Shown here one piece after another: positions 53,514-64,000 of a stretch of DNA of 64,000 nt. The notes under the pieces are model-generated. The model ran no database searches. It was not told the DNA's origin and saw only the letters and a program-made list of their open reading frames with translations. Numbering within the stretch: position 1 is the stretch's first letter; each line of letters begins with the position of its first letter. Both the position numbers and the translations under genes were made by a program. The DNA is from Luteibacter rhizovicinus (GTDB taxonomy: Bacteria > Pseudomonadota > Gammaproteobacteria > Xanthomonadales > Rhodanobacteraceae). The stretch is taken from positions 310,001-374,000 of the forward strand of contig NZ_SMCS01000005.1 of the NCBI RefSeq assembly GCF_004342265.1, given 5' to 3'.

Positions 53514-55754
53514 TCAGGTCCGGCCGAAGGGAGCGTGTCGCATCAGCGGAAGATCGCGAAGAGGGCTTCCCATCACGCGCGACAGCGCTATGGTCACTGC
53601 GGCGGCGGTCGGTCCCTGGGCGATCTCCGCCGCGCCAAGGAACGGCAGGCCGGGTCGATCGACGATATGCACGCTGACTTCGTCGGGCACCTGCGAGAAC
53701 CGCATGATGGGATAGCCCGACCAGTCGTTGCTGTGTACCTGTATTTCGTCGAAGTCGACCGCTTCGTACAGGGTCCAGCTCGTCGATTGCAGAATGCCGC
53801 CTTCGATCTGGTTGCGGGCGCCATCGGGGTTTACGATCTGTCCGCAGTCGATGGCGGCCACGGCACGCAGCAGCCGTACGGCGTTCGTGTCCGGATCGTA
53901 TGCCACCTCCACCGCAATGGCGAAGTAACCCATGATGTTCTTGTAGCGCGAAAACGCGAAACCGGCCGCCTTGCGATCGTCGGTACCCCGGTATGGCCAG
54001 CCGAATTCTCGGGCCGCGGTCCGGATGACTTCCACGGCGCGGGGATCGTCCAGATGGCGAATACGGAAGTCCACGGGATCTTGCCCGACGGAGCGGGCGA
54101 GTTCGTCGACGGTGGTTTCGATCGATACCACATTGATGTGCGCGCCCAGCGAGCGCATGGCGGACGTCCGGAAGGGCATCTCGGGAACGAAGTTCATCGT
54201 CACGTCGAGATTCGGTATGCGGTAAGGCGGAACCGCGTTGCGATCCGCATCGCCCTCGGGATTGGGGATCGGTACCGGTGGCGCGGACACGAAGGGCTTT
54301 GCCAGCAAAGTAGCCGGTGCGAGGCGTCCGGCATTCACGATGCGTTCGTTGTGCGGCGTACTCCACAGCGCGAAGTTCCAGTCGCGGAGATTGCCGGCGT
54401 CATCCAGCGTCGCCTTCAGATCGGTCGCCATGGCCGGACCGTAGGGTTCCCACAATTGCTCCTGATCCCTCATCCATTGCACTCGCACGGGCTGTCCGGG
54501 AACCGCGCGTGCGAGCAGGGCCGCATCGGCCGCTACATCGTCGGCGCCGTTGTGTCCGTAGCAACCGGATCCTTCCACGTGAATGCAATGCACCTTGTCT
54601 AGCGGCACCCCGAGCATTTCAGCCAGTCCACCGCGCAGGGGATAGACGCCCTGCGTATGCGTCCAGACCGTCATCGTGCCATCGGCAAGCTGGGCGACGG
54701 CGCACGAGGGTCCGATCGATCCGTGCTGCACGTACTGTTTCGTATGCGTGCAGGTGAACGCTGGCTTCGTCGAGACGGGCGCTGTCGAGCGGCTGGCCGT
54801 GGGATACACCTTCGCCGGCAACGTGCGTAGCGCCGCATGGATGCCGGCGTAGCCGGGAAGTGCCGGAGCAGCCGTCCAGCCAGCGGCACGGGTGAGTGCG
54901 CGTGCCGCGACGATGGCGCGCCATTCGTCGTCCGCGAGCACGCCGATGAAGTCGCCATCGACGACGACGCGTACTACGCCCGGAAGCTTTTCGACGGCGG
55001 TTACGTCCAGCTGCTTCAGCCGGGCTCCCGGCAGTGGTGGGCGCACGACGCGGGCATGCAGCATGCCGGGCAGGCGCATGTCCTGAACATACGCGGCTCC
55101 GCCAGTCACCTTTCCCGGAATGTCCACGCGAGGAAGAGAGGTACCGATAAGGGTGAATGTCTTCGGATCCACGGCAGGCGATGTTGCATCGGCCTGCCGA
55201 TGCAACTGGATATCCTTCACGGCCTCGGCGTAGGTGACTTTCCTGCCATCGTCGGCGCGAATCTCCCCGTCTTTGGCGGTGAGTCGGGATACGGGTACGC
55301 CGAGGCGCGAGGATGCCGCCGTCAGCAACAGAAACCTCACCTGGGCGGCCGCGTTGAATAGAGCGGTACCGCCATCGGCCATGCTGTGACTACCCGCTGT
55401 GTAACCCTCGTCGGGCGTGCGGGCGGTATCGGCGGTAACCAGCGTAATCAATGCGGGCCGGACGGAGAGTTGCTCGGCGGCTATCTGGAGCATGGCTGTC
55501 CTGACGCCCGTACCCAGCTCGACCTTGCCCGTACACACGGTTATCCCGCTGTCGTCGATCTTTATCCATGCGTCGAGGAACGGATTGGATTTCAGGCTGC
55601 CGGGCAGATTGGGCGCCAGGATGACCGTGCCGAGGGTGTCCACCTTCTGAGCCAGCAGGCGCGCAGGCGCCATGGTCGCGAAAGCGACTACCAGCGCACC
55701 GTTGACGATGAATGCACGGCGGGAGATATCGACGCGATCGTCGTGGCGGGTCAT
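53514..55754 (-). CDS. Molybdopterin-binding subunit of a xanthine-dehydrogenase-family oxidoreductase
   Basis: A 746-residue catalytic subunit with a twin-arginine leader, DISRRAFIVNGALVVAFATM, so it is exported folded with its cofactor. Family features include GKVELGTGVRTAMLQIAAEQ, HSMADGGTALFNAA, FVPEMPFRTSAMRSLG and the C-terminal FLGAAEIAQGPTAAAV, which contains the Glu expected to act as base at the molybdenum. The arrangement resembles isoquinoline 1-oxidoreductase beta subunits and membrane aldehyde dehydrogenases. The start overlaps the stop of the iron-sulphur subunit by four bases. The substrate is uncertain: aldehydes or N-heterocycles. Confidence 0.9.
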   Translation of the reverse strand: MTRHDDRVDISRRAFIVNGALVVAFATMAPARLLAQKVDTLGTVILAPNLPGSLKSNPFLDAWIKIDDSGITVCTGKVELGTGVRTAMLQIAAEQLSVRPALITLVTADTARTPDEGYTAGSHSMADGGTALFNAAAQVRFLLLTAASSRLGVPVSRLTAKDGEIRADDGRKVTYAEAVKDIQLHRQADATSPAVDPKTFTLIGTSLPRVDIPGKVTGGAAYVQDMRLPGMLHARVVRPPLPGARLKQLDVTAVEKLPGVVRVVVDGDFIGVLADDEWRAIVAARALTRAAGWTAAPALPGYAGIHAALRTLPAKVYPTASRSTAPVSTKPAFTCTHTKQYVQHGSIGPSCAVAQLADGTMTVWTHTQGVYPLRGGLAEMLGVPLDKVHCIHVEGSGCYGHNGADDVAADAALLARAVPGQPVRVQWMRDQEQLWEPYGPAMATDLKATLDDAGNLRDWNFALWSTPHNERIVNAGRLAPATLLAKPFVSAPPVPIPNPEGDADRNAVPPYRIPNLDVTMNFVPEMPFRTSAMRSLGAHINVVSIETTVDELARSVGQDPVDFRIRHLDDPRAVEVIRTAAREFGWPYRGTDDRKAAGFAFSRYKNIMGYFAIAVEVAYDPDTNAVRLLRAVAAIDCGQIVNPDGARNQIEGGILQSTSWTLYEAVDFDEIQVHSNDWSGYPIMRFSQVPDEVSVHIVDRPGLPFLGAAEIAQGPTAAAVTIALSRVMGSPLRDLPLMRHAPFGRT

Positions 55755-56212
55755 GCGTGTTCTCCCGCCGCCACGACGCGAATAGCCGCAAGAATGCGCA
55801 TGTGTGTGCCGCAACGGCAGAGGTTCGGTTCCATGTGTTCGCGGATGGTGGCCTCGTCCGGATGCGGGTTGGCCGCAAGCAAGGCCTGCGCACGCATGAT
55901 CATTCCCGAAATGCAGTAACCGCACTGCGCTGCCTGGTGCGCGATGAACGAAGCCTGCAGTGGCGACGGGTGCGCAAGCGTGCCGAGACCTTCGATGGTC
56001 ACGACTTCGCGCGCGCCGATCGACGACAGCGGCGTAACGCAGGAGAACACGGGTTTCCCTTGCACGATCACCGTACATGCGCCGCACTGGCCCATTCCGC
56101 AGCCGAATTTCGCACCATTCATGCGCAAGTCGTTACGCAACACATATAGGAGCGGCGTTTCCGGACCGGCTTCGACCTGGTGCAGTACGCCGTTGACCCT
56201 CAGCTCGATCAT
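55751..56212 (-). CDS. (2Fe-2S) subunit of the molybdenum hydroxylase
   Basis: A 153-residue ferredoxin-like subunit that relays electrons from the molybdenum centre. Eight cysteines bind two 2Fe-2S clusters: Cys38, Cys43, Cys46 and Cys58 in the N-terminal plant-ferredoxin-type fold (GCGMGQCGAC), and Cys97, Cys100, Cys132 and Cys134 in the helical domain (CGYC ... LCRC). The start and the stop both overlap neighbours as ATGA, so the three subunits are coupled. It has no leader of its own and probably travels with the Tat-leader subunit. Confidence 0.92.
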   Translation of the reverse strand: MIELRVNGVLHQVEAGPETPLLYVLRNDLRMNGAKFGCGMGQCGACTVIVQGKPVFSCVTPLSSIGAREVVTIEGLGTLAHPSPLQASFIAHQAAQCGYCISGMIMRAQALLAANPHPDEATIREHMEPNLCRCGTHMRILAAIRVVAAGEHA

Positions 56213-57489
56213 GGTGGTGCGCTCCCGTCCTTTCCGACCTCTTCGATAATCTTGTTCGTGGCTCGCCATGGTTCCTTCTTGCCGAATCGCACACGCAGGT
56301 AAACTAGGAGATTCGCGATGTCCCTGTTGCTCAGCGCGTCGTCGAATGACGGCATATAGACCGAAACTCCAGGCTCGTCCGGCAAGCCGATGCCGTTAAC
56401 GATGGTCTGAATGGCATTGCGCGGAGTGTCCGCGTGGATCGACGTCGCCATATCGAGCGACGGCCGGCCTTCCATCGCCATCATGGGGGCCGACGGTTCG
56501 TGACATCCCGCGCAACCACCTGCGAAAAGCGAAGCTCCCTCGGCGTACCCAGCGGGCATAGAGGGATTGACTGGCGTGTCGTTGCGCACGCCACGCGGTT
56601 TCTGCAGCGACAGCACATAGCTTGCGATCGCCTCGACATCGGCACGCGGCAGTTTGCTCAGATTATCGACAACGGGACGCATGGGGCCCGCTGCCGCTCC
56701 ATGTTCGCTGGCTACGCCGGTACTGAGATAGTCGACCAGCTGGCCTTGCGTCCAGGGACGCGTTGCGCTGTCCAGCCTGTTCAGTGGCGGGGCATCCCAG
56801 CCATCGACAGTAGCGCCGTCGTACGGCTTGCCGTGCTCCTCGCCTCCGATGAAGTCGAGTGGCGTGTGGCACGAGGCGCAATGTCCCGCGCCTTCGGCGA
56901 GATAACGCCCGCGTTCGACGACGCCCCTTCCGGCCGGTACGGCACCGGACTTCAGGAACAGCAGGTTCCAGAATGCAAGGGAAGGGCGGAGCCGGAACAG
57001 TAGGGGCAGTTCATTCTTTCGTGGCGGGGCATCGACCGGTCTGCGGCTCATGAGGAAGGCATACGCATCGTCGATATCCGCATCCGCCATGCGCGTGTAG
57101 TGCACATAGGGAAATGCGGGATAAAGGAAATGGCCGTCGCGGGACACGCCGTGCCGCAACGCTCGCCGGAAGGCATCGACAGACCACCTGCCGATGCCGG
57201 TCGCGGCATCGGGGGTGATGTTGGTGGAGTAGATCGTTCCGAACGGCGTCTTCAGTCCGTACCCGCCCGCGTACGATGTTCCTTCGCGAGCGGTATGGCA
57301 GACGATACAATCCCCCTGCGCGACAACCCGCGCACCGCGAGCGATCGTCGCGGCATCCGCGGGAATGGGCGTTCCCGTGGTTTCGCGCAGCGAAGGACGC
57401 CACATGATCGCGAACGCGACCGCACACAGGACGCCCGATGCTGCAAGCAGAACGGTACGGCGTTTCATCGGGTTCGCTCGCGCGCTCAT
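56209..57489 (-). CDS. Triheme cytochrome c subunit
   Basis: A 426-residue membrane-attached electron acceptor for the hydroxylase. An N-terminal hydrophobic stretch (VLLAASGVLCAVAFAIMW) serves as anchor or signal. Three c-heme motifs are present: CIVCH at residues 61-65, CASCH at 204-208 and CAGCH at 326-330. The layout matches the triheme subunits of acetic-acid-bacterial alcohol and aldehyde dehydrogenases. The ATG at 57489 is preceded by AAGGTCAA. It is the first gene of the three-gene operon. Confidence 0.92.
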   Translation of the reverse strand: MSARANPMKRRTVLLAASGVLCAVAFAIMWRPSLRETTGTPIPADAATIARGARVVAQGDCIVCHTAREGTSYAGGYGLKTPFGTIYSTNITPDAATGIGRWSVDAFRRALRHGVSRDGHFLYPAFPYVHYTRMADADIDDAYAFLMSRRPVDAPPRKNELPLLFRLRPSLAFWNLLFLKSGAVPAGRGVVERGRYLAEGAGHCASCHTPLDFIGGEEHGKPYDGATVDGWDAPPLNRLDSATRPWTQGQLVDYLSTGVASEHGAAAGPMRPVVDNLSKLPRADVEAIASYVLSLQKPRGVRNDTPVNPSMPAGYAEGASLFAGGCAGCHEPSAPMMAMEGRPSLDMATSIHADTPRNAIQTIVNGIGLPDEPGVSVYMPSFDDALSNRDIANLLVYLRVRFGKKEPWRATNKIIEEVGKDGSAPP

Positions 57490-59103: not shown

Positions 59104-59163
59104 TCTTGCGATTAATCGCAAGATCATGCCGCTTGCAAAGCGGCCCGTATTCTTCGAAGAATA
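59104..59163. promoter_or_regulatory. Three consecutive palindromes
   Basis: In 60 bases there are a perfect 20-base palindrome at 59104-59123 (TCTTGCGATT and its complement), a hairpin with 7-base arms GCCGCTT / AAGCGGC around GCA at 59128-59144, and a perfect 16-base palindrome at 59148-59163 (TATTCTTC and its complement). The flanking dyads have the size of dimeric regulator sites. They lie about 290 bases before the MbtH-like start. Confidence 0.55.
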
Positions 59164-59397
59164 TGAGGACAGGGAATTCGGTGGCATGGGCCTGCTCCAT
59201 GCAATCTTTTGAACGGACTCAAGGGGTCAAGCTGATGCGTAATGGGGACGACCCGGGCCTTCCTGCCGACACGCCGATATTCCGGCGGAACAATGCGAAC
59301 GCGGCAGCTTCAGATCGCCCCGATTACCCAATCTTTCCGATTGGCTGGTCGATACCCAAACCCCTGTGCAAGCCATCGTTTCCAGGTAGTGATACGT

Positions 59398-59428
59398 CAA
59401 TCGCGCGGTAAAGGCGATTGCGTCTTTC
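59398..59428 (+). terminator. Leader hairpin with T-rich tail before mbtH-like gene
   Basis: CAATCGC (59398-59404) and GCGATTG (59414-59420) form a 7-base stem with a 9-base loop, followed by CGTCTTTCTTT. It is on the coding strand, about 20 bases before the ribosome binding site of the MbtH-like gene, where an attenuator would be expected. The T tract is interrupted, so efficiency is uncertain. Confidence 0.35.
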
Positions 59429-59446
59429 TTTAGCAAAGGAGCGTGC

Positions 59447-59668
59447 ATGTCTACCAGTTCGAGTTCGTCAGAAGCGATGTACGAAGTGGTCGTCAACCAG
59501 GAAGGTCAGTATTCGATCTGGCCGGTGATTAAGGCGTTGCCGCAGGGTTGGACGAAGGCCGGAAAACAAGGCTCGAAAGAATTCTGCCTTGAATTCGTCA
59601 GCGAGGTATGGACCGACATGCGTCCACTTTCACTTCGCGCGCGGATGGAGTCCATGCAGTCAAGTTAG
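59447..59668 (+). CDS. MbtH-like protein
   Basis: A 73-residue protein of the MbtH family, small partners that bind and activate adenylation domains of non-ribosomal peptide synthetases. The family core is complete: YEVVVNQEGQYSIWPVIKAL, PQGW and VWTDMRPLSLR, with the three conserved tryptophans at positions 25, 35 and 55. The start has AAAGGAG about eight bases upstream. Its presence next to polyketide genes implies amino-acid-loading modules in the same cluster, beyond the right edge of the window. Confidence 0.93.
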   Translation: MSTSSSSSEAMYEVVVNQEGQYSIWPVIKALPQGWTKAGKQGSKEFCLEFVSEVWTDMRPLSLRARMESMQSS

Positions 59669-59911
59669 CTTCATCGCGAGCGGTTCGTCGCGAGGGGCTA
59701 AGTGAAATATAAAAACTGCATCCTATCCTGGGTAGTGACATGCCAGATGAGCGTCTGCTGTTCGTTTGTCTTTACTTTCGGACGCCATGTTCCAGTTTGT
59801 CCGCGCGCCCCAGGGGGGGAGTGGTTGCGCGGTCTGCCATGAATTTCAAATTCGCCCACTCACCCAGACCTTGGTGGATGGTGTGATTTCGAGGCGGAAC
59901 TATGGCCCAGG

Positions 59912-62900
59912 ATGGGTGCGTCGCTTGTGAAAACCATACTTCTTTTTTCAGGACAGGGCTCCCATCATTTTCAGATGGGCCGGGAGCTTTTTGATCGCGA
60001 TAAGGGCTTTCGCACCACCATGCAGCACGCGGATCGCGTGATGCGCGAACGTTGCGGCGAATCGGTACTGGGCGTGCTGTTTGCGGAACGCAATACCAGG
60101 GATATTCCGCTCAACCGTCTTTTGCACAGTCACTGTGCCATCTTCATGGTGGAATATGCATTGGCGAAGTCGCTGATCGACCATGGCGTGCGGGTCGATA
60201 TGGTCCTGGGCGCGAGCCTGGGCGCATTTGCCGCTGCCGCGGTGGCGGGTTGCATCGACCCGGATGCCGCGTTACTCGCAGTGATCGAGCAGGCGATCGC
60301 GCTGGAAGAACATGGCGAGCCTGGTTGCATGATCGCGGTCATGGGCGAACCGGAGCGCTATCTCACACCGGAATTGCTTGCGCTTTGCGAACTCGGGGCG
60401 CGCAATTTTTCGACGCACTCGGTGATCTCGTTACCGGAACGGAACGTCGCAGCGGTTGAAGCCGGTCTTCGCGGGCATGGCATGGCGTTCCAGCGGCTTC
60501 CGGTCAGCTTCGCATTTCATTCGCGCTGGATCGATACCGCCAGAAAGCCATATCAGGCATTCCTGCAAACGCTGGCATTCCGGCAAGGCAATGTTCCCGT
60601 CATCTGTTGCGCTACCGGCACGGTATTGCACACGTTGCCCGCCGGTTATTTCTGGTCGGTCGTGCGCGATCCCATTTTTTTCTCGCAAACCCTTGACCTG
60701 ATCGAATCGCAGGACAGCTATCGCTATATCGATGTCAGCCCGGGTGGAACGATGGCGACGTTCCTGAAGTACGGACTACCGGTCGATTCGAAATCCCGGG
60801 TTCACCATGTGATGTCGCCATTCGGCGGCGACATGGACCGGTTGACCGAATTGACGGCGCATCGAGACGGGCAGGTACAGAACAGGCGCATCCCGGAGTC
60901 ACGCAAAATGAAGGCAATCATCTTCCCCGGCCAGGGCTCCCAGTTCAGGGGAATGGGCAAGGACCTCTTTCCACTCTTTCCGGAACAGGTCAGGAAAGCA
61001 TCCGACATTCTCGGGTACTCGCTGGAAGATCTGTGTCTGAACGACAGGCAAGGGCTCCTGTCGCAGACGCAGTACACCCAGCCTGCGCTGTTTGTCGTCA
61101 ACGCCCTGCATTACTTCCGGCAGCGAGAACTGGACGCCGCTAACGAAGCCGGTCCGCCGCCGGATTTCTTTGCAGGCCACAGTCTCGGTGAGTACAACGC
61201 CTTGCTGGCGGCTGGGGTGTTCTCTTTTGAAACGGGGCTTCGCCTCGTTAAAAAACGGGGAGAGCTGATGGGTATGGCCAGCGGCGGCGGGATGGCGGCC
61301 GTGCTCGGCACGTCGGCCACGGAAATCAGGGCGATGCTCGATGGGCATGACCTGGGACAGATCGATATCGCCAACTTCAATACCCCTGCGCAAACGGTTA
61401 TCGCCGGCGATAAAGACGCACTCACTGCGGCATCCGAGCTATTTTCGCGAATGAATCTACGCTGCGTGACGTTGAATGTCAGCGCGGCATTCCATTCCCG
61501 CCACATGCGGTCGGCGCAAGCGGAATTCGCCGGTTTCCTGCAGCAATTCTCGTTTTCGGCACCGGAAGTCACGGTGATCGCCAATGCTACCGCCCGCCCT
61601 TACGACCCGGCTCGCATTGCCGAGACGCTGGCCAGTCAGATCGCGACGTCGGTGCAGTGGGTGGACTCGATTCGCTATGTGATGGGGAAAGGCGATGTCG
61701 AGTTCCATGAGATCGGAGGAAGCGTACTTTCGAAAATGGTGCACGAGATACGAACCACGGAAACACCGATATTAGACGATATGTCGGATGCCCAACCCGT
61801 GAACGATCCCGACATGGGTAGCGTGGCGGACGAGCGGGCATCGAATGCACGCGCAGTCGAAGTGGCTCGCGAAACAGACCAGCGCGCCGCGCCGATTCTG
61901 GTAAACGCAACATCGCTTGGCAGCGAGGTGTTCCAGCGCCGGTTTGGCTTGAAGTACGCCTATATGGCCGGAGCGATGTATCGCGGCGTCGCCTCCACCG
62001 AGCTGGTCGTAAGGATGGGTAAGGCGGGCTTTCTGAGCTTCTTCGGCGCGGGCGGGCTTTCGCTGCAAAAGATCGAGGCGAACATCGTTCGCATACAGGC
62101 CGAGTTGAATGCGGGCCAGCCGTACGGCATGAACCTGTTGGCGAACTATGAATACCCCTCTCAAGAAGAAGCGGTGGTCGATCTCTATCTCAAGTATGGG
62201 ATCAGGAACATCGAGGCCGCGGCCTTCATGCAAATGACGCCCGCCCTGGTCAAGTTTCGCTTGCAGGGTCTGCGTACGAATACGCGTAACGAGATCGTTT
62301 GCGACCATCGCATCGTAGCGAAGGTATCCCGTCCGGAAGTGGCAAAGGCATTCATGAGTCCGCCGCCACTCGCGATCGTGGAAAAGTTGCTGGAGCGCCA
62401 CCAGATAACGCCGCAGCAGGCGGAATGGTCGCAAAGCATTCCCGTCAGTCACGATATCTGCGTCGAAGCCGACTCCGGCGGTCATACCGATGGCGGCATC
62501 GTGGCGGTGATGCTGCCACCTTTGCTGCGACTCCGTGACGATATGCAGCGGACGCATCGCTACATGGAGCCCATTTGCATGGGACTGGCGGGCGGCATCG
62601 GTGGCCCGGAAGCTGCGGCCGCGGCATTCCTGCTCGGCGCCGATTTCGTCGCGACGGGCTCGATCAACCAATGCACCGTGGAAGCGGGCATGAGTCCGGA
62701 CGGGAAGTCGATGCTTCAGGAAATGGACATTCAGGACACCGAATATGCGCCGGCGGGGGACATGTTCGAAATTGGCGCGCAGGTTCAGGTGATGAAGAAG
62801 TCCGTCTTCTTCCCGGCGCGGGCGAACAAGCTGCTTTCGCTATATCGCCACTACGACAGCCTGGACGATATACCGGCGCGTACCCGGCATCAGCTGGAAA

Positions 62901-63256
62901 GCACGTTCTTCAAGAAGACGTTCGATGAAATCTGGAACGAGACGGCAAGTTATTTCAGGTCGGTAAATCTGGACCACGAAATCGTCAAGGCCGACGCAAA
63001 TGCGAAACACAAGATGGCACTGGTGTTTCGCTGGTACTTCGCCTACTGCACCCGCATTGCCATGGAAGGGAAGGGCGACGACCGCGTGAACTATCAGATC
63101 CAGACAGGGCCGGCATTGGGCTCGTTCAATCAATGGGTAAAAGGGACGGAACTTGAGCAATGGACCAAGCGGCACGTGGATCACATTGCAATCAAGATCA
63201 TGGATGCGACAGCGGAACATCTGACGCGGTCCTTTGCCCGCTTTCTCAGTAGCTGA
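59912..63256 (+). CDS. Trans-acting AT-AT-ER protein (acyl hydrolase / malonyltransferase / PfaD-type enoyl reductase)
   Basis: A 1114-residue free-standing polyketide accessory protein. Domain 1 (about 7-310) is an acyltransferase fold with GASLG, Ser102 and His203, but Gln127 stands where malonyl-binding Arg is expected. Domain 2 (about 333-625) is a standard malonyltransferase with GQGSQ, GHSLG (Ser424), Arg449 and His528. Domain 3 (about 665-1114) is a PfaD-type FMN enoyl reductase with FGAGGLSLQKIEANI, GMNLLAN, EADSGGHTDG and GGIGGPEAAAAAFLLGADFV. The AT-AT-ER order is known from mupirocin MmpC and related trans-AT systems, where the first domain is a proofreading hydrolase. The start is ATG 59912 or GTG 59927. 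Confidence 0.93.
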   Translation: MGASLVKTILLFSGQGSHHFQMGRELFDRDKGFRTTMQHADRVMRERCGESVLGVLFAERNTRDIPLNRLLHSHCAIFMVEYALAKSLIDHGVRVDMVLGASLGAFAAAAVAGCIDPDAALLAVIEQAIALEEHGEPGCMIAVMGEPERYLTPELLALCELGARNFSTHSVISLPERNVAAVEAGLRGHGMAFQRLPVSFAFHSRWIDTARKPYQAFLQTLAFRQGNVPVICCATGTVLHTLPAGYFWSVVRDPIFFSQTLDLIESQDSYRYIDVSPGGTMATFLKYGLPVDSKSRVHHVMSPFGGDMDRLTELTAHRDGQVQNRRIPESRKMKAIIFPGQGSQFRGMGKDLFPLFPEQVRKASDILGYSLEDLCLNDRQGLLSQTQYTQPALFVVNALHYFRQRELDAANEAGPPPDFFAGHSLGEYNALLAAGVFSFETGLRLVKKRGELMGMASGGGMAAVLGTSATEIRAMLDGHDLGQIDIANFNTPAQTVIAGDKDALTAASELFSRMNLRCVTLNVSAAFHSRHMRSAQAEFAGFLQQFSFSAPEVTVIANATARPYDPARIAETLASQIATSVQWVDSIRYVMGKGDVEFHEIGGSVLSKMVHEIRTTETPILDDMSDAQPVNDPDMGSVADERASNARAVEVARETDQRAAPILVNATSLGSEVFQRRFGLKYAYMAGAMYRGVASTELVVRMGKAGFLSFFGAGGLSLQKIEANIVRIQAELNAGQPYGMNLLANYEYPSQEEAVVDLYLKYGIRNIEAAAFMQMTPALVKFRLQGLRTNTRNEIVCDHRIVAKVSRPEVAKAFMSPPPLAIVEKLLERHQITPQQAEWSQSIPVSHDICVEADSGGHTDGGIVAVMLPPLLRLRDDMQRTHRYMEPICMGLAGGIGGPEAAAAAFLLGADFVATGSINQCTVEAGMSPDGKSMLQEMDIQDTEYAPAGDMFEIGAQVQVMKKSVFFPARANKLLSLYRHYDSLDDIPARTRHQLESTFFKKTFDEIWNETASYFRSVNLDHEIVKADANAKHKMALVFRWYFAYCTRIAMEGKGDDRVNYQIQTGPALGSFNQWVKGTELEQWTKRHVDHIAIKIMDATAEHLTRSFARFLSS

Positions 63257-63277
63257 AGCATCGATGGGGAATGGGTG

Positions 63278-63334
63278 ACCCGATTGGCGTCGCCCGGGCG
63301 AGGGAGCCCGCCGTTTCAACCCGGCCAATCGGGT
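63278..63334. repeat. Inverted repeat between AT-AT-ER and PKS genes
   Basis: ACCCGATTGGC (63278-63288) and its exact complement (63324-63334) are separated by 35 bases that are themselves GC-rich. It could form a weak intercistronic hairpin. No T run follows, so a terminator is unlikely. Confidence 0.55.
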
Positions 63335-63381
63335 TGACGGAAGCAGCATCCGAAAGCAAACACCACAGGATAGGCACGATC

Positions 63382-64000
63382 ATGAATGTCGGTCAGATTC
63401 CGCCCCAGGATAGCCAATCGCCATCTACGGACAAGGAAGGGGAGGGACGTATTGTCGATCGTGGCGACGGCGGGGATATCGCCATCATCGGCATGTCTTG
63501 CCGTTTTCCCGGTGCCGAAAACTACGACCAGTTCTGGGAGAACCTGTGCAACGGCCTATCCAGCGTAAGCGAGATTCCGGAAAACAGATGGGACAAGGAC
63601 GCTTTCTATTCGACCGATGTGCGGGAAAAGAACAAGTCCATCAGTAAGTGGGGCGGGTTTGTCGATGGCGTGGAGTTCTTCGATTCCGATTTCTTCGGTG
63701 TGTCCGCGCGCGAAGCCGAGGTCATGGACCCGCAGCAGCGGATCATGCTGGAGCAGGCATGGTCATGCATCGAAGACGCGGGCTACGACCCTGCGGTCTT
63801 CAGTGGCAGCCGCACGGGCGTCTATATCGGCGTGTTCAATTTCGACTACAAGGATCATCTGGGTAATGCGCTCGATGCGATCGAGGGGCACGTCTCCACC
63901 GGAACGCATACCGCTCTCATCCCGAATCGCATCTCGTATTTCCTGAATTTGCACGGCCCGAGCATGCCGATCGATACCGCGTGCTCAAGCTCGCTGGTCG
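63382..64000 (+). CDS. Polyketide synthase (partial, N-terminal ketosynthase)
   Basis: The first 206 codons of a large synthase that continues beyond the right edge. After a polar leader of about 33 residues the ketosynthase begins with DIAIIGMSCRFPGAENYDQF and continues with FFGVSAREAEVMDPQQRIML and GVYIGVFNFDY. The active-site Cys201 in PIDTACSSSLV is just inside the window. No loading, ACP or adenylation domain precedes this ketosynthase. The free-standing AT gene upstream makes a trans-AT type likely; absence of an in-module AT cannot be checked here. The start at 63382 follows AGGA with a somewhat long spacer. Confidence 0.92.
   Translation, partial: MNVGQIPPQDSQSPSTDKEGEGRIVDRGDGGDIAIIGMSCRFPGAENYDQFWENLCNGLSSVSEIPENRWDKDAFYSTDVREKNKSISKWGGFVDGVEFFDSDFFGVSAREAEVMDPQQRIMLEQAWSCIEDAGYDPAVFSGSRTGVYIGVFNFDYKDHLGNALDAIEGHVSTGTHTALIPNRISYFLNLHGPSMPIDTACSSSLV

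What the first reader, a model, noticed from the sequence alone, without database searches (positions are those of the whole stretch)
59104..64000. Left edge of a hybrid trans-AT polyketide / non-ribosomal peptide cluster
The sequence shows an MbtH-like gene, a stand-alone AT-AT-ER protein and a ketosynthase start in one direction with small gaps. Known biology: discrete acyltransferases serve AT-less modules, and MbtH proteins partner adenylation domains. The inference is a hybrid cluster whose body lies to the right, with no known product that can be named from this window. Such clusters are less familiar in Xanthomonadales-like genomes.
Basis: partly seen in the sequence, partly recalled or inferred. 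Interest (0 to 1): 0.85.

Follow-up and report, generated by a model that had tools for sequence, protein, structure and literature searches.

The report
Giant hybrid polyketide-peptide assembly line gene
The window ends in the first three genes of a large bacterial gene cluster that builds an unknown small molecule, half polyketide and half short peptide, on one giant protein assembly line, and related bacteria carry versions with one to four amino-acid modules.

Summary
In detail: an MbtH gene (59447-59668), a tri-domain protein (59912-63256) and a ketosynthase-led gene (from 63271) run in one direction. In the window's own genome the ketosynthase gene runs off its contig; shared 95-bp contig ends imply the order C5-C15-C1. 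The synthase has 7 KS, 6 DH, 4 KR, no integral AT found, 4 C-A modules and a TE, about 13,400 residues if the two short joints stay in frame. P450, MATE and type II TE genes follow. A relative on one contig has the same layout in a 13,392-codon frame. In the family, 16 of 233 genomes (own included) hold the tri-domain gene at 65-100% identity, 4 of 23 in the genus (Luteibacter, by inference). Ten intact relatives have 7 KS each but 1-4 C-A modules. In the window's genome, modules 8 and 11 share 1871 identical bases, a copied Ser-type unit by inference. It is a new orphan family of a known kind (trans-AT PKS/NRPS); product unknown.

The parts
59104..59165 (+). conserved promoter/operator-like (or leader RNA) element of the cluster: inverted repeat CTTGCG..CGCAAG, then TTGCAAAG-N9-TTCTTCGAAGAAT
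   Evidence: Pattern at 59132-59161; allowing one mismatch it occurs once in each of the 4 cluster-bearing genomes of the genus and in 0 of the other 19; fuzzy match in 8 of 16 loci. Function inferred.
59447..59668 (+). MbtH-like protein, 73 aa, predicted partner of the A domains
   Evidence: PF03621 1e-19; found in 8 of 10 intact relatives
59912..60847 (+). AH: PedC/PksD-type acyl hydrolase domain of the tri-domain protein (nucleophile Ser codon 60215; Gln at the malonate-Arg position, codon 60290)
   Evidence: best PDB hit PksD 8avz, 4e-66; Q in 11 of 11 sequences, own plus 10 relatives
60908..61786 (+). AT: trans-acting malonyl-type acyltransferase (GHSLG, Ser codon 61181; Arg codon 61256)
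   Evidence: best PDB hits DisD 2e-86, PksE 8e-84; fabD TIGR00128 1e-108; R in 11 of 11
61904..63226 (+). ER: PfaD-family trans enoyl reductase domain
   Evidence: TIGR02814 2e-196; PDB 4cw5 (DfnA) 3e-156
63271..64000 (+). start of the PKS-NRPS megasynthase gene (KS1 from about 63475; a later ATG at 63382 is possible); continues to the contig end and, by inference, through contigs C15 and C1 to about 13,400 aa
   Evidence: PF00109 2.8e-59

Best explanation
This is the 5' end of an orphan trans-AT polyketide synthase / non-ribosomal peptide synthetase cluster. A promoter just upstream of MbtH probably drives MbtH, the AH-AT-ER protein, one giant synthase gene, a P450, a MATE exporter and a type II thioesterase. 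Working model: a starter of unknown identity is taken up by KS1, as no domain was found before it. The free-standing AT charges the carrier proteins of the AT-less modules with malonyl units. KS1-KS6 elongate. KR/DH pairs in modules 1, 2, 4 and 5 leave double bonds, some perhaps reduced by the trans ER; modules 3 and 6 have DH but no KR. KS7 lacks a catalytic His and passes the chain on without elongation. Four C-A-PCP modules, helped by MbtH, add Ser, X (code DALWIGGTF), Ala, Ser, and the TE releases the product. The AH removes stalled short acyl groups, the P450 oxidises and MATE exports. Shown: genes, domains, motifs, contig-end overlaps, conservation. Inferred: the joined gene, every catalytic step, the A-domain substrates (read from recalled code tables) and the product.
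For: Domains in the window. Continuation in the own genome. Shared contig ends of 95 bp. Domain content: no AT found, four C-A, TE. KS flanking linker PF22336 (RhiE-like) in the modules. Same layout (7 KS, 6 DH, 4 KR, 4 C, 4 A, TE) in one 13,392-codon frame on a single 5.5 Mb contig (G111). 10 of 10 intact relatives have 7 KS, P450 and MATE. P450 confirmed by Pfam. AH and AT signatures (criterion read in passages of PMC11775670). KS7 has Gln for the first catalytic His in 11 of 11 synthases. A-domain signatures.
Against: About 615 nt at each of two joints (205 codons, by the length of the intact KS5) are missing from the assembly and the join is inferred. The genome is a draft, so the 1871-nt exact repeat within C1 could partly reflect assembly, though its flanks differ and a relative on one contig shows a similar repeat. 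The start codon is uncertain (63271 or 63382). No expression or product data. KR-less DH modules 3 and 6 fit neither published dehydrating-bimodule type.
Confidence: 0.88

Rival explanations
1. The PfaD-type ER and the tandem acyltransferases belong to a polyunsaturated-fatty-acid synthase-like system, and the NRPS modules elsewhere are unrelated.
For: The ER hits the pfaD family and PfaD structures.
Against: The ER domain hits DfnA and MlnA, which are trans-AT PKS enzymes (recalled), more strongly than PfaD. NRPS modules share an open frame with KS modules in C1 and in 10 of 10 relatives. Matches to TIGR02813 (PfaA) stay far below its cut-off: 171.9 and 58.6 against 1010.1 bits.
Confidence: 0.02
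2. The window shows a partial or decayed cluster: the synthase pieces on C5, C15 and C1 are separate loci or remnants, not one assembly line.
For: The assembly is broken at two places; no read data could be examined.
Against: All pieces are open to the contig ends. Their ends share 95 bp in the way one collapsed KS repeat would give. The relative G111 has the same module order and nearly the same length, 13,392 codons stop to stop versus 13,401 expected.
Confidence: 0.06
3. The conserved element 59104-59165 is a cis-acting RNA (LoaP- or EAR-like antiterminator) that lets RNA polymerase cross the 40-kb gene, rather than a promoter/operator.
For: Tandem hairpins, fold z-score -2.43, 4 of 200 shuffles fold as well. 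The second hairpin has two pairs with two-sided changes; for the two helices together 4 of 500 shuffles reach the covariation score and the structure beats all six slid versions on that score. 4 of 4 cluster genomes have the element, 0 of 19 others. LoaP-controlled PKS operons of Bacillus have a leader hairpin (passages of PMC12691694).
Against: Each of the 23 genus genomes has a single PF02357 (NusG) match, so no LoaP/RfaH-type partner is seen. The third hairpin has no two-sided change and falls from 4 of 4 pairs to 1 of 4; the second is broken at two or more pairs in 4 of 8 loci. With 8 related sequences the shuffle control is weak. TTGCAA followed at 18 bases by AAGAAT looks like a promoter by eye, although the consensus scan found none (0 found, 0.9 expected). 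No Rfam match in the window.
Confidence: 0.22

Closest known systems
AH-AT-ER tri-domain proteins of trans-AT PKSs (OzmM; named in PMC11775670, passages read)
   Same: domain order and diagnostic residues
   Different: sequence not compared with OzmM itself
Trans-AT PKS bimodule core, PDB 7zma/7zmd/7zsk (recalled as Brevibacillus brevis, Tittes 2022; the paper is not held; its subject is mentioned in passages of PMC11907408)
   Same: module 3 aligns over nearly its whole length, 901.8 bits for the best stretch; KS-DH-ACP-KS layout (recalled)
   Different: roughly half identical by eye; another, unnamed pathway
Hangtaimycin hybrid trans-AT PKS/NRPS (PMC8456789, passages read)
   Same: trans-AT PKS with NRPS, an internal KR-less DH module
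   Different: there the KR-less DH module has a KS0; here KS3 and KS6 keep Cys-His-His
Interleaved PKS/NRPS cluster reported in Luteibacter mycovicinus (PMC11165876, passages read)
   Same: same genus by inference, type I PKS/NRPS
   Different: no sequence or domain layout in the passages seen; it may instead correspond to the other PKS/NRPS locus of this genome (C1:683-695 kb)

Membership tests
trans-AT type I modular PKS | modules without integral AT | tested here: met
   no PF00698 in 13 of 13 synthase slices; 88 codons where two fetched stretches meet were not scanned, and the middle of two KSs is missing from the assembly
trans-AT type I modular PKS | free-standing malonyl AT in the cluster | tested here: met
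   second domain with GHSLG and Arg; DisD/PksE-like
trans-AT type I modular PKS | KSs of trans-AT type in a KS phylogeny with characterised KSs | tested here: inconclusive
   the best five PDB matches of module 3 are recalled as trans-AT KSs and PF22336 is found; the tree made here holds only this family
hybrid PKS/NRPS | C, A and PCP domains in line with KS modules | tested here: met
   4 C and 4 A in the same 8898-aa frame as 3 KS
PedC/PksD-type acyl hydrolase (first 'AT') | Gln (or other) instead of Arg at the malonate site; often G(A/S/V)SL | tested here: met
   Q in 11 of 11; GASL in 10 and GSSL in 1 of 11
PedC/PksD-type acyl hydrolase (first 'AT') | hydrolysis of short acyl-ACP | not testable with these tools
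   needs an enzyme assay
type A dehydrating bimodule (M2-M3, M5-M6) | second KS is KS0 | tested here: not met
   own KS3 and KS6 read EAHGTGT and NIGH
type B dehydrating bimodule | KS-KR-ACP-KS//DH-ACP-KR order | tested here: not met
   a KS follows the ACP of M3 and M6, no KR
LoaP/RfaH-type antitermination operon | specialised NusG paralogue in the genome | tested here: not met
   one PF02357 match in each of 23 genomes

The most novel reading that the evidence does not exclude
This family is a natural engineering series. One conserved seven-KS trans-AT core, kept in a single polypeptide, has been joined in different species to one, two, three or four NRPS modules, and the peptide has been re-coded by copying the Ser-activating unit inside the same gene at two different breakpoints: C-lobe plus A (window genome, M8 to M11) and A alone (G111, M8 to M9). 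The breakpoints would be naturally selected exchange sites.
Probability: 0.55. Interest if true: 0.58.

Novelty: new member of a known kind. Interest (0 to 1): 0.42.

Why it matters
Orphan hybrid assembly lines are leads for new compounds, and this one lies in a bacterial family for which the listings seen here named no trans-AT product. More generally, ten intact relatives plus this one form a matched set in which the seven-KS core stays and the peptide part grows, shrinks and is re-coded, with breakpoints readable at base level. That is useful for choosing exchange points in engineered megasynthases.

Tried and rejected
Antitermination by a NusG paralogue (LoaP/RfaH type): rejected in its simple form, one PF02357 match per genome in 23 of 23. 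Leader RNA in general: left open. Rfam gave nothing, the third hairpin is not kept by compensation, the second shows some covariation. On re-checking I found that my first script had tested only the third hairpin; searches mended this and I raised this rival from 0.15 to 0.22. Island at a tRNA: no tRNA in the window. Finding an empty site through the upstream MFS gene: failed, its homologues in the genus are 36-41% identical. Shared flanks: see the full report. Dehydrating bimodule types A and B: neither met. A NusG-type ops word GGCGGTAG occurs at no consistent place. An alignment with an ill-chosen stretch of L076 was uninformative and not used. KS tree: useful only for the grouping KS1 / KS2+4+5 / KS3+6 / KS7; 20 of 53 inner branches are open, and the program warns that long branches meet. 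Passages of PMC10434035 and PMC11260071 gave nothing used here.
Full report
What is in the window. MbtH is at 59447-59668 (PF03621, 1e-19). A 1114-aa tri-domain protein is at 59912-63256. A gene led by a ketosynthase starts at 63271 or at a later ATG (63382) and is open at the window end. The window is bases 310001-374000 of contig C5 of a 22-contig, 4.47 Mb genome.

The tri-domain protein. Its first domain has PksD, an acyl hydrolase, as best PDB match (8avz, 4e-66). Its second has DisD and PksE (2e-86, 8e-84), and its third DfnA, MlnA and PfaD, in that order. Passages read in PMC11775670 state that acyl hydrolases carry Gln (less often another residue) where acyltransferases have the malonate-binding Arg, often with G(A/S/V)SL in place of GHSL, and name AH-AT-ER as a known fusion (OzmM). 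Domain 1 reads GASL with Q; domain 2 reads GHSL with R. In the own protein plus 10 relatives, Q and R are found in 11 of 11.

The rest of the synthase. The KS gene runs open to the end of C5. C15 (7062 bp) is open at both ends, and the end of C1 holds an 8898-aa frame open at its 5' end. The last 95 bases of C5 equal the last 95 of C15 read in the coding direction, and the first 95 of C15 equal the first 95 of C1 in the coding direction. This is what one collapsed KS repeat, used twice, would leave, and it implies the order C5-C15-C1. The middle of two KSs (205 codons each, by the length of the intact KS5) is then missing from the assembly; the expected total is 13,401 residues. A search with 73 bases of the shared end found no further contig: 4 matches, all on C15, C5 and C1.

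Domains (motifs). M1 KS-DH-KR-ACP; M2 KS-DH-KR-ACP; M3 KS-DH-ACP; M4 KS-DH-KR-ACP; M5 KS-DH-KR-ACP; M6 KS-DH-ACP; M7 KS-PCP, in which the first catalytic His is Gln (11 of 11 synthases, own plus 10 relatives); M8-M11 C-A-PCP; TE. No integral AT was reported in the 13 slices scanned. Left out were 88 codons where the fetched stretches L011 and L012 meet, and the missing KS middles. After it on C1 come a P450 (PF00067 in both halves, 1.7e-34 and 2.7e-39), a MATE exporter and a type II TE. A signatures: A1 and A4 DVWHMSLVD, A2 DALWIGGTF, A3 DLFNNALTY. Reading these as Ser, unassigned and Ala rests on recalled code tables. C2 is a divergent condensation domain: 173 bits against Pfam versus 380-405 for the other three; in the relative G111 the second C is divergent too (41 bits against the local model versus 765-776). 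Its nearest PDB chain is McyB. KR-less M3 and M6 keep Cys-His-His in their KSs, so they meet neither dehydrating-bimodule definition in PMC8456789 (passages).

Relatives. A scan of named genomes gave 21 loci; 10 of them, L020-L029 (Dyella, Luteibacter, Rhodanobacter, Undibacterium, Aquimarina), match over most of the protein with best segments of 52-81% identity. Among 233 genomes of the family, 23 match at E<=1e-100. Of these, 16 (own included) carry the gene at 65-100% identity; in G094 the match is partial and in G081 it lies in pieces. The other 7, all of one genus, match only in the ER at 41-55%. In the own genus it is 4 of 23, own included. One of the four, G129, has the contig coordinates of the record named Luteibacter sp. 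dw_328, so the window is probably from a Luteibacter. Ten relatives with unbroken loci were annotated with models built from the own domains. All 10 have one frame with 7 KS (10,608-13,392 codons, stop to stop), a P450 and a MATE gene; MbtH was found in 8 of 10 (not in the fetched stretches of G114 and G155). The number of C-A modules is 4 (G111), 3 (D. nitratireducens), 2 (G114) and 1 (the other seven). G111, on a single 5.5 Mb contig, matches the own module order throughout. The PKS part is not wholly constant: 9 of the 10 (all but G111) have 5 DH instead of 6, and 8 of the 10 (all but G111 and D. nitratireducens) have a KR-like stretch and two carrier proteins in M6; in dw_328 this module also has a methyltransferase. 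Dyella sp. S184 (cut by a contig end) and other broken loci were left out of these counts.

Re-coding of the peptide. In the own synthase, M8 and M11 share 1871 identical bases from inside the C domain to the end of the A core. Downstream, identity stays at 97-99% for 400 bases and then falls to 57% and below; upstream it declines over 300-400 bases (95, 92, 73, 57%) (ungapped). In 60-column windows of a protein alignment, own M11 resembles G111's M11 in the C N-lobe (63-83%, against 56-78% for G111's M8) and around the PCP (72%). In the C-lobe the two comparisons do not differ (72-90% and 72-88%). In the A domain it does not resemble G111's M11 (13-57%) and follows M8. In G111 the A domains of M8 and M9 share 1031 identical bases, whereas its M9 C domain still resembles the own M9 C domain (62-90%). 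The reading is that a Ser-activating unit was copied within the gene, in two lineages separately, once with the C-lobe and once without. Direction, independence and selection are inferred. Shorter exact repeats (150-455 nt) also link PKS modules in own and in G111; the other six synthases examined have no exact repeat of 150 nt. Because the own genome is a draft, the 1871 identical bases deserve long-read confirmation.

Control region. Upstream of MbtH lies an element with the consensus CGCAAGAACTTGC-N3-TTGCAAAG-N9-TTNTTYRAAGAA (degenerate in its first part in the window). In the genus the second part, allowing one mismatch, occurs once in each of the 4 cluster genomes, just upstream of the cluster, and in 0 of 19 others; the backward control pattern gave none. 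A fuzzy search of the region before the cluster found it in 8 of 16 loci, the one in G155 with three mismatches. RNA evidence is mixed. The strand folds better than most shuffles (z -2.43). One hairpin has two pairs with two-sided changes and the covariation score is reached by 4 of 500 shuffles, but that hairpin is broken in 4 of 8 loci and the next has no compensating change. No genome of the genus has a second NusG match, and the simple promoter scan found no consensus promoter. A promoter with an operator remains the better reading, not a proven one.

Edges. Upstream of MbtH only weak matches (35-44%) to other places in the relatives' stretches were found. Downstream, P450 and MATE are shared widely, the TEII with D. 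subtropica and D. choica only among the loci compared. A subtilase-like gene right of the own cluster has a 72% match over 148 aa at the edge of the stretch left of the G198 cluster (Pfam).

What it is. It is a trans-AT PKS/NRPS cluster by the features that could be tested; the KS phylogeny against characterised KSs was not possible. No paper seen here describes it. Two searches held no paper. Of searches only listings were seen (37: 20 of 122 papers; 46: 20 of 23; 83: 5 of 119), apart from the passages cited. In PMC7930024, a large survey of trans-AT PKSs, the main text does not contain Dyella, Luteibacter or Rhodanobacter (supplements not searched). PMC11165876 mentions an undescribed PKS/NRPS cluster in Luteibacter mycovicinus, which may or may not be this one.

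Noticed in passing
59104-59165: Element found once per cluster-bearing genome of the genus (4 of 4, one mismatch allowed) and in none of the 19 others: promoter/operator or leader RNA.
   Followed up: yes
L053/L054 (D. subtropica C13:75001-104680): A second cluster of the same type (3 KS and at least 2 C-A, the frame is cut by the fetched stretch) next to which acyltransferase sequence was found only in short frames of 187 and 100 aa; it may borrow the AT of the main cluster.
   Followed up: partly
L055-L057 (G111), right of the MATE gene: A further KS-DH-CP / KS-DH-KR-CP / KS-DH frame begins after the cluster, cut by the end of the fetched stretch.
   Followed up: no
G000:C1:683473-694595 (L013): Another PKS/NRPS locus in the own genome (1 KS, 2 C, 2 A), possibly the one that antiSMASH reports in Luteibacter mycovicinus.
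   Followed up: no
53514-57489: Molybdenum-hydroxylase genes (MoCoBD_2, Fer2_2) with a cytochrome c gene with three matched stretches, on the - strand next to the cluster; only a 35% match of the cytochrome in D. choica among relatives' loci.
   Followed up: partly
L045:5588-8851 (Luteibacter sp. dw_328): Module 6 there carries a KR and a methyltransferase that were not found in module 6 of the window's synthase.
   Followed up: partly
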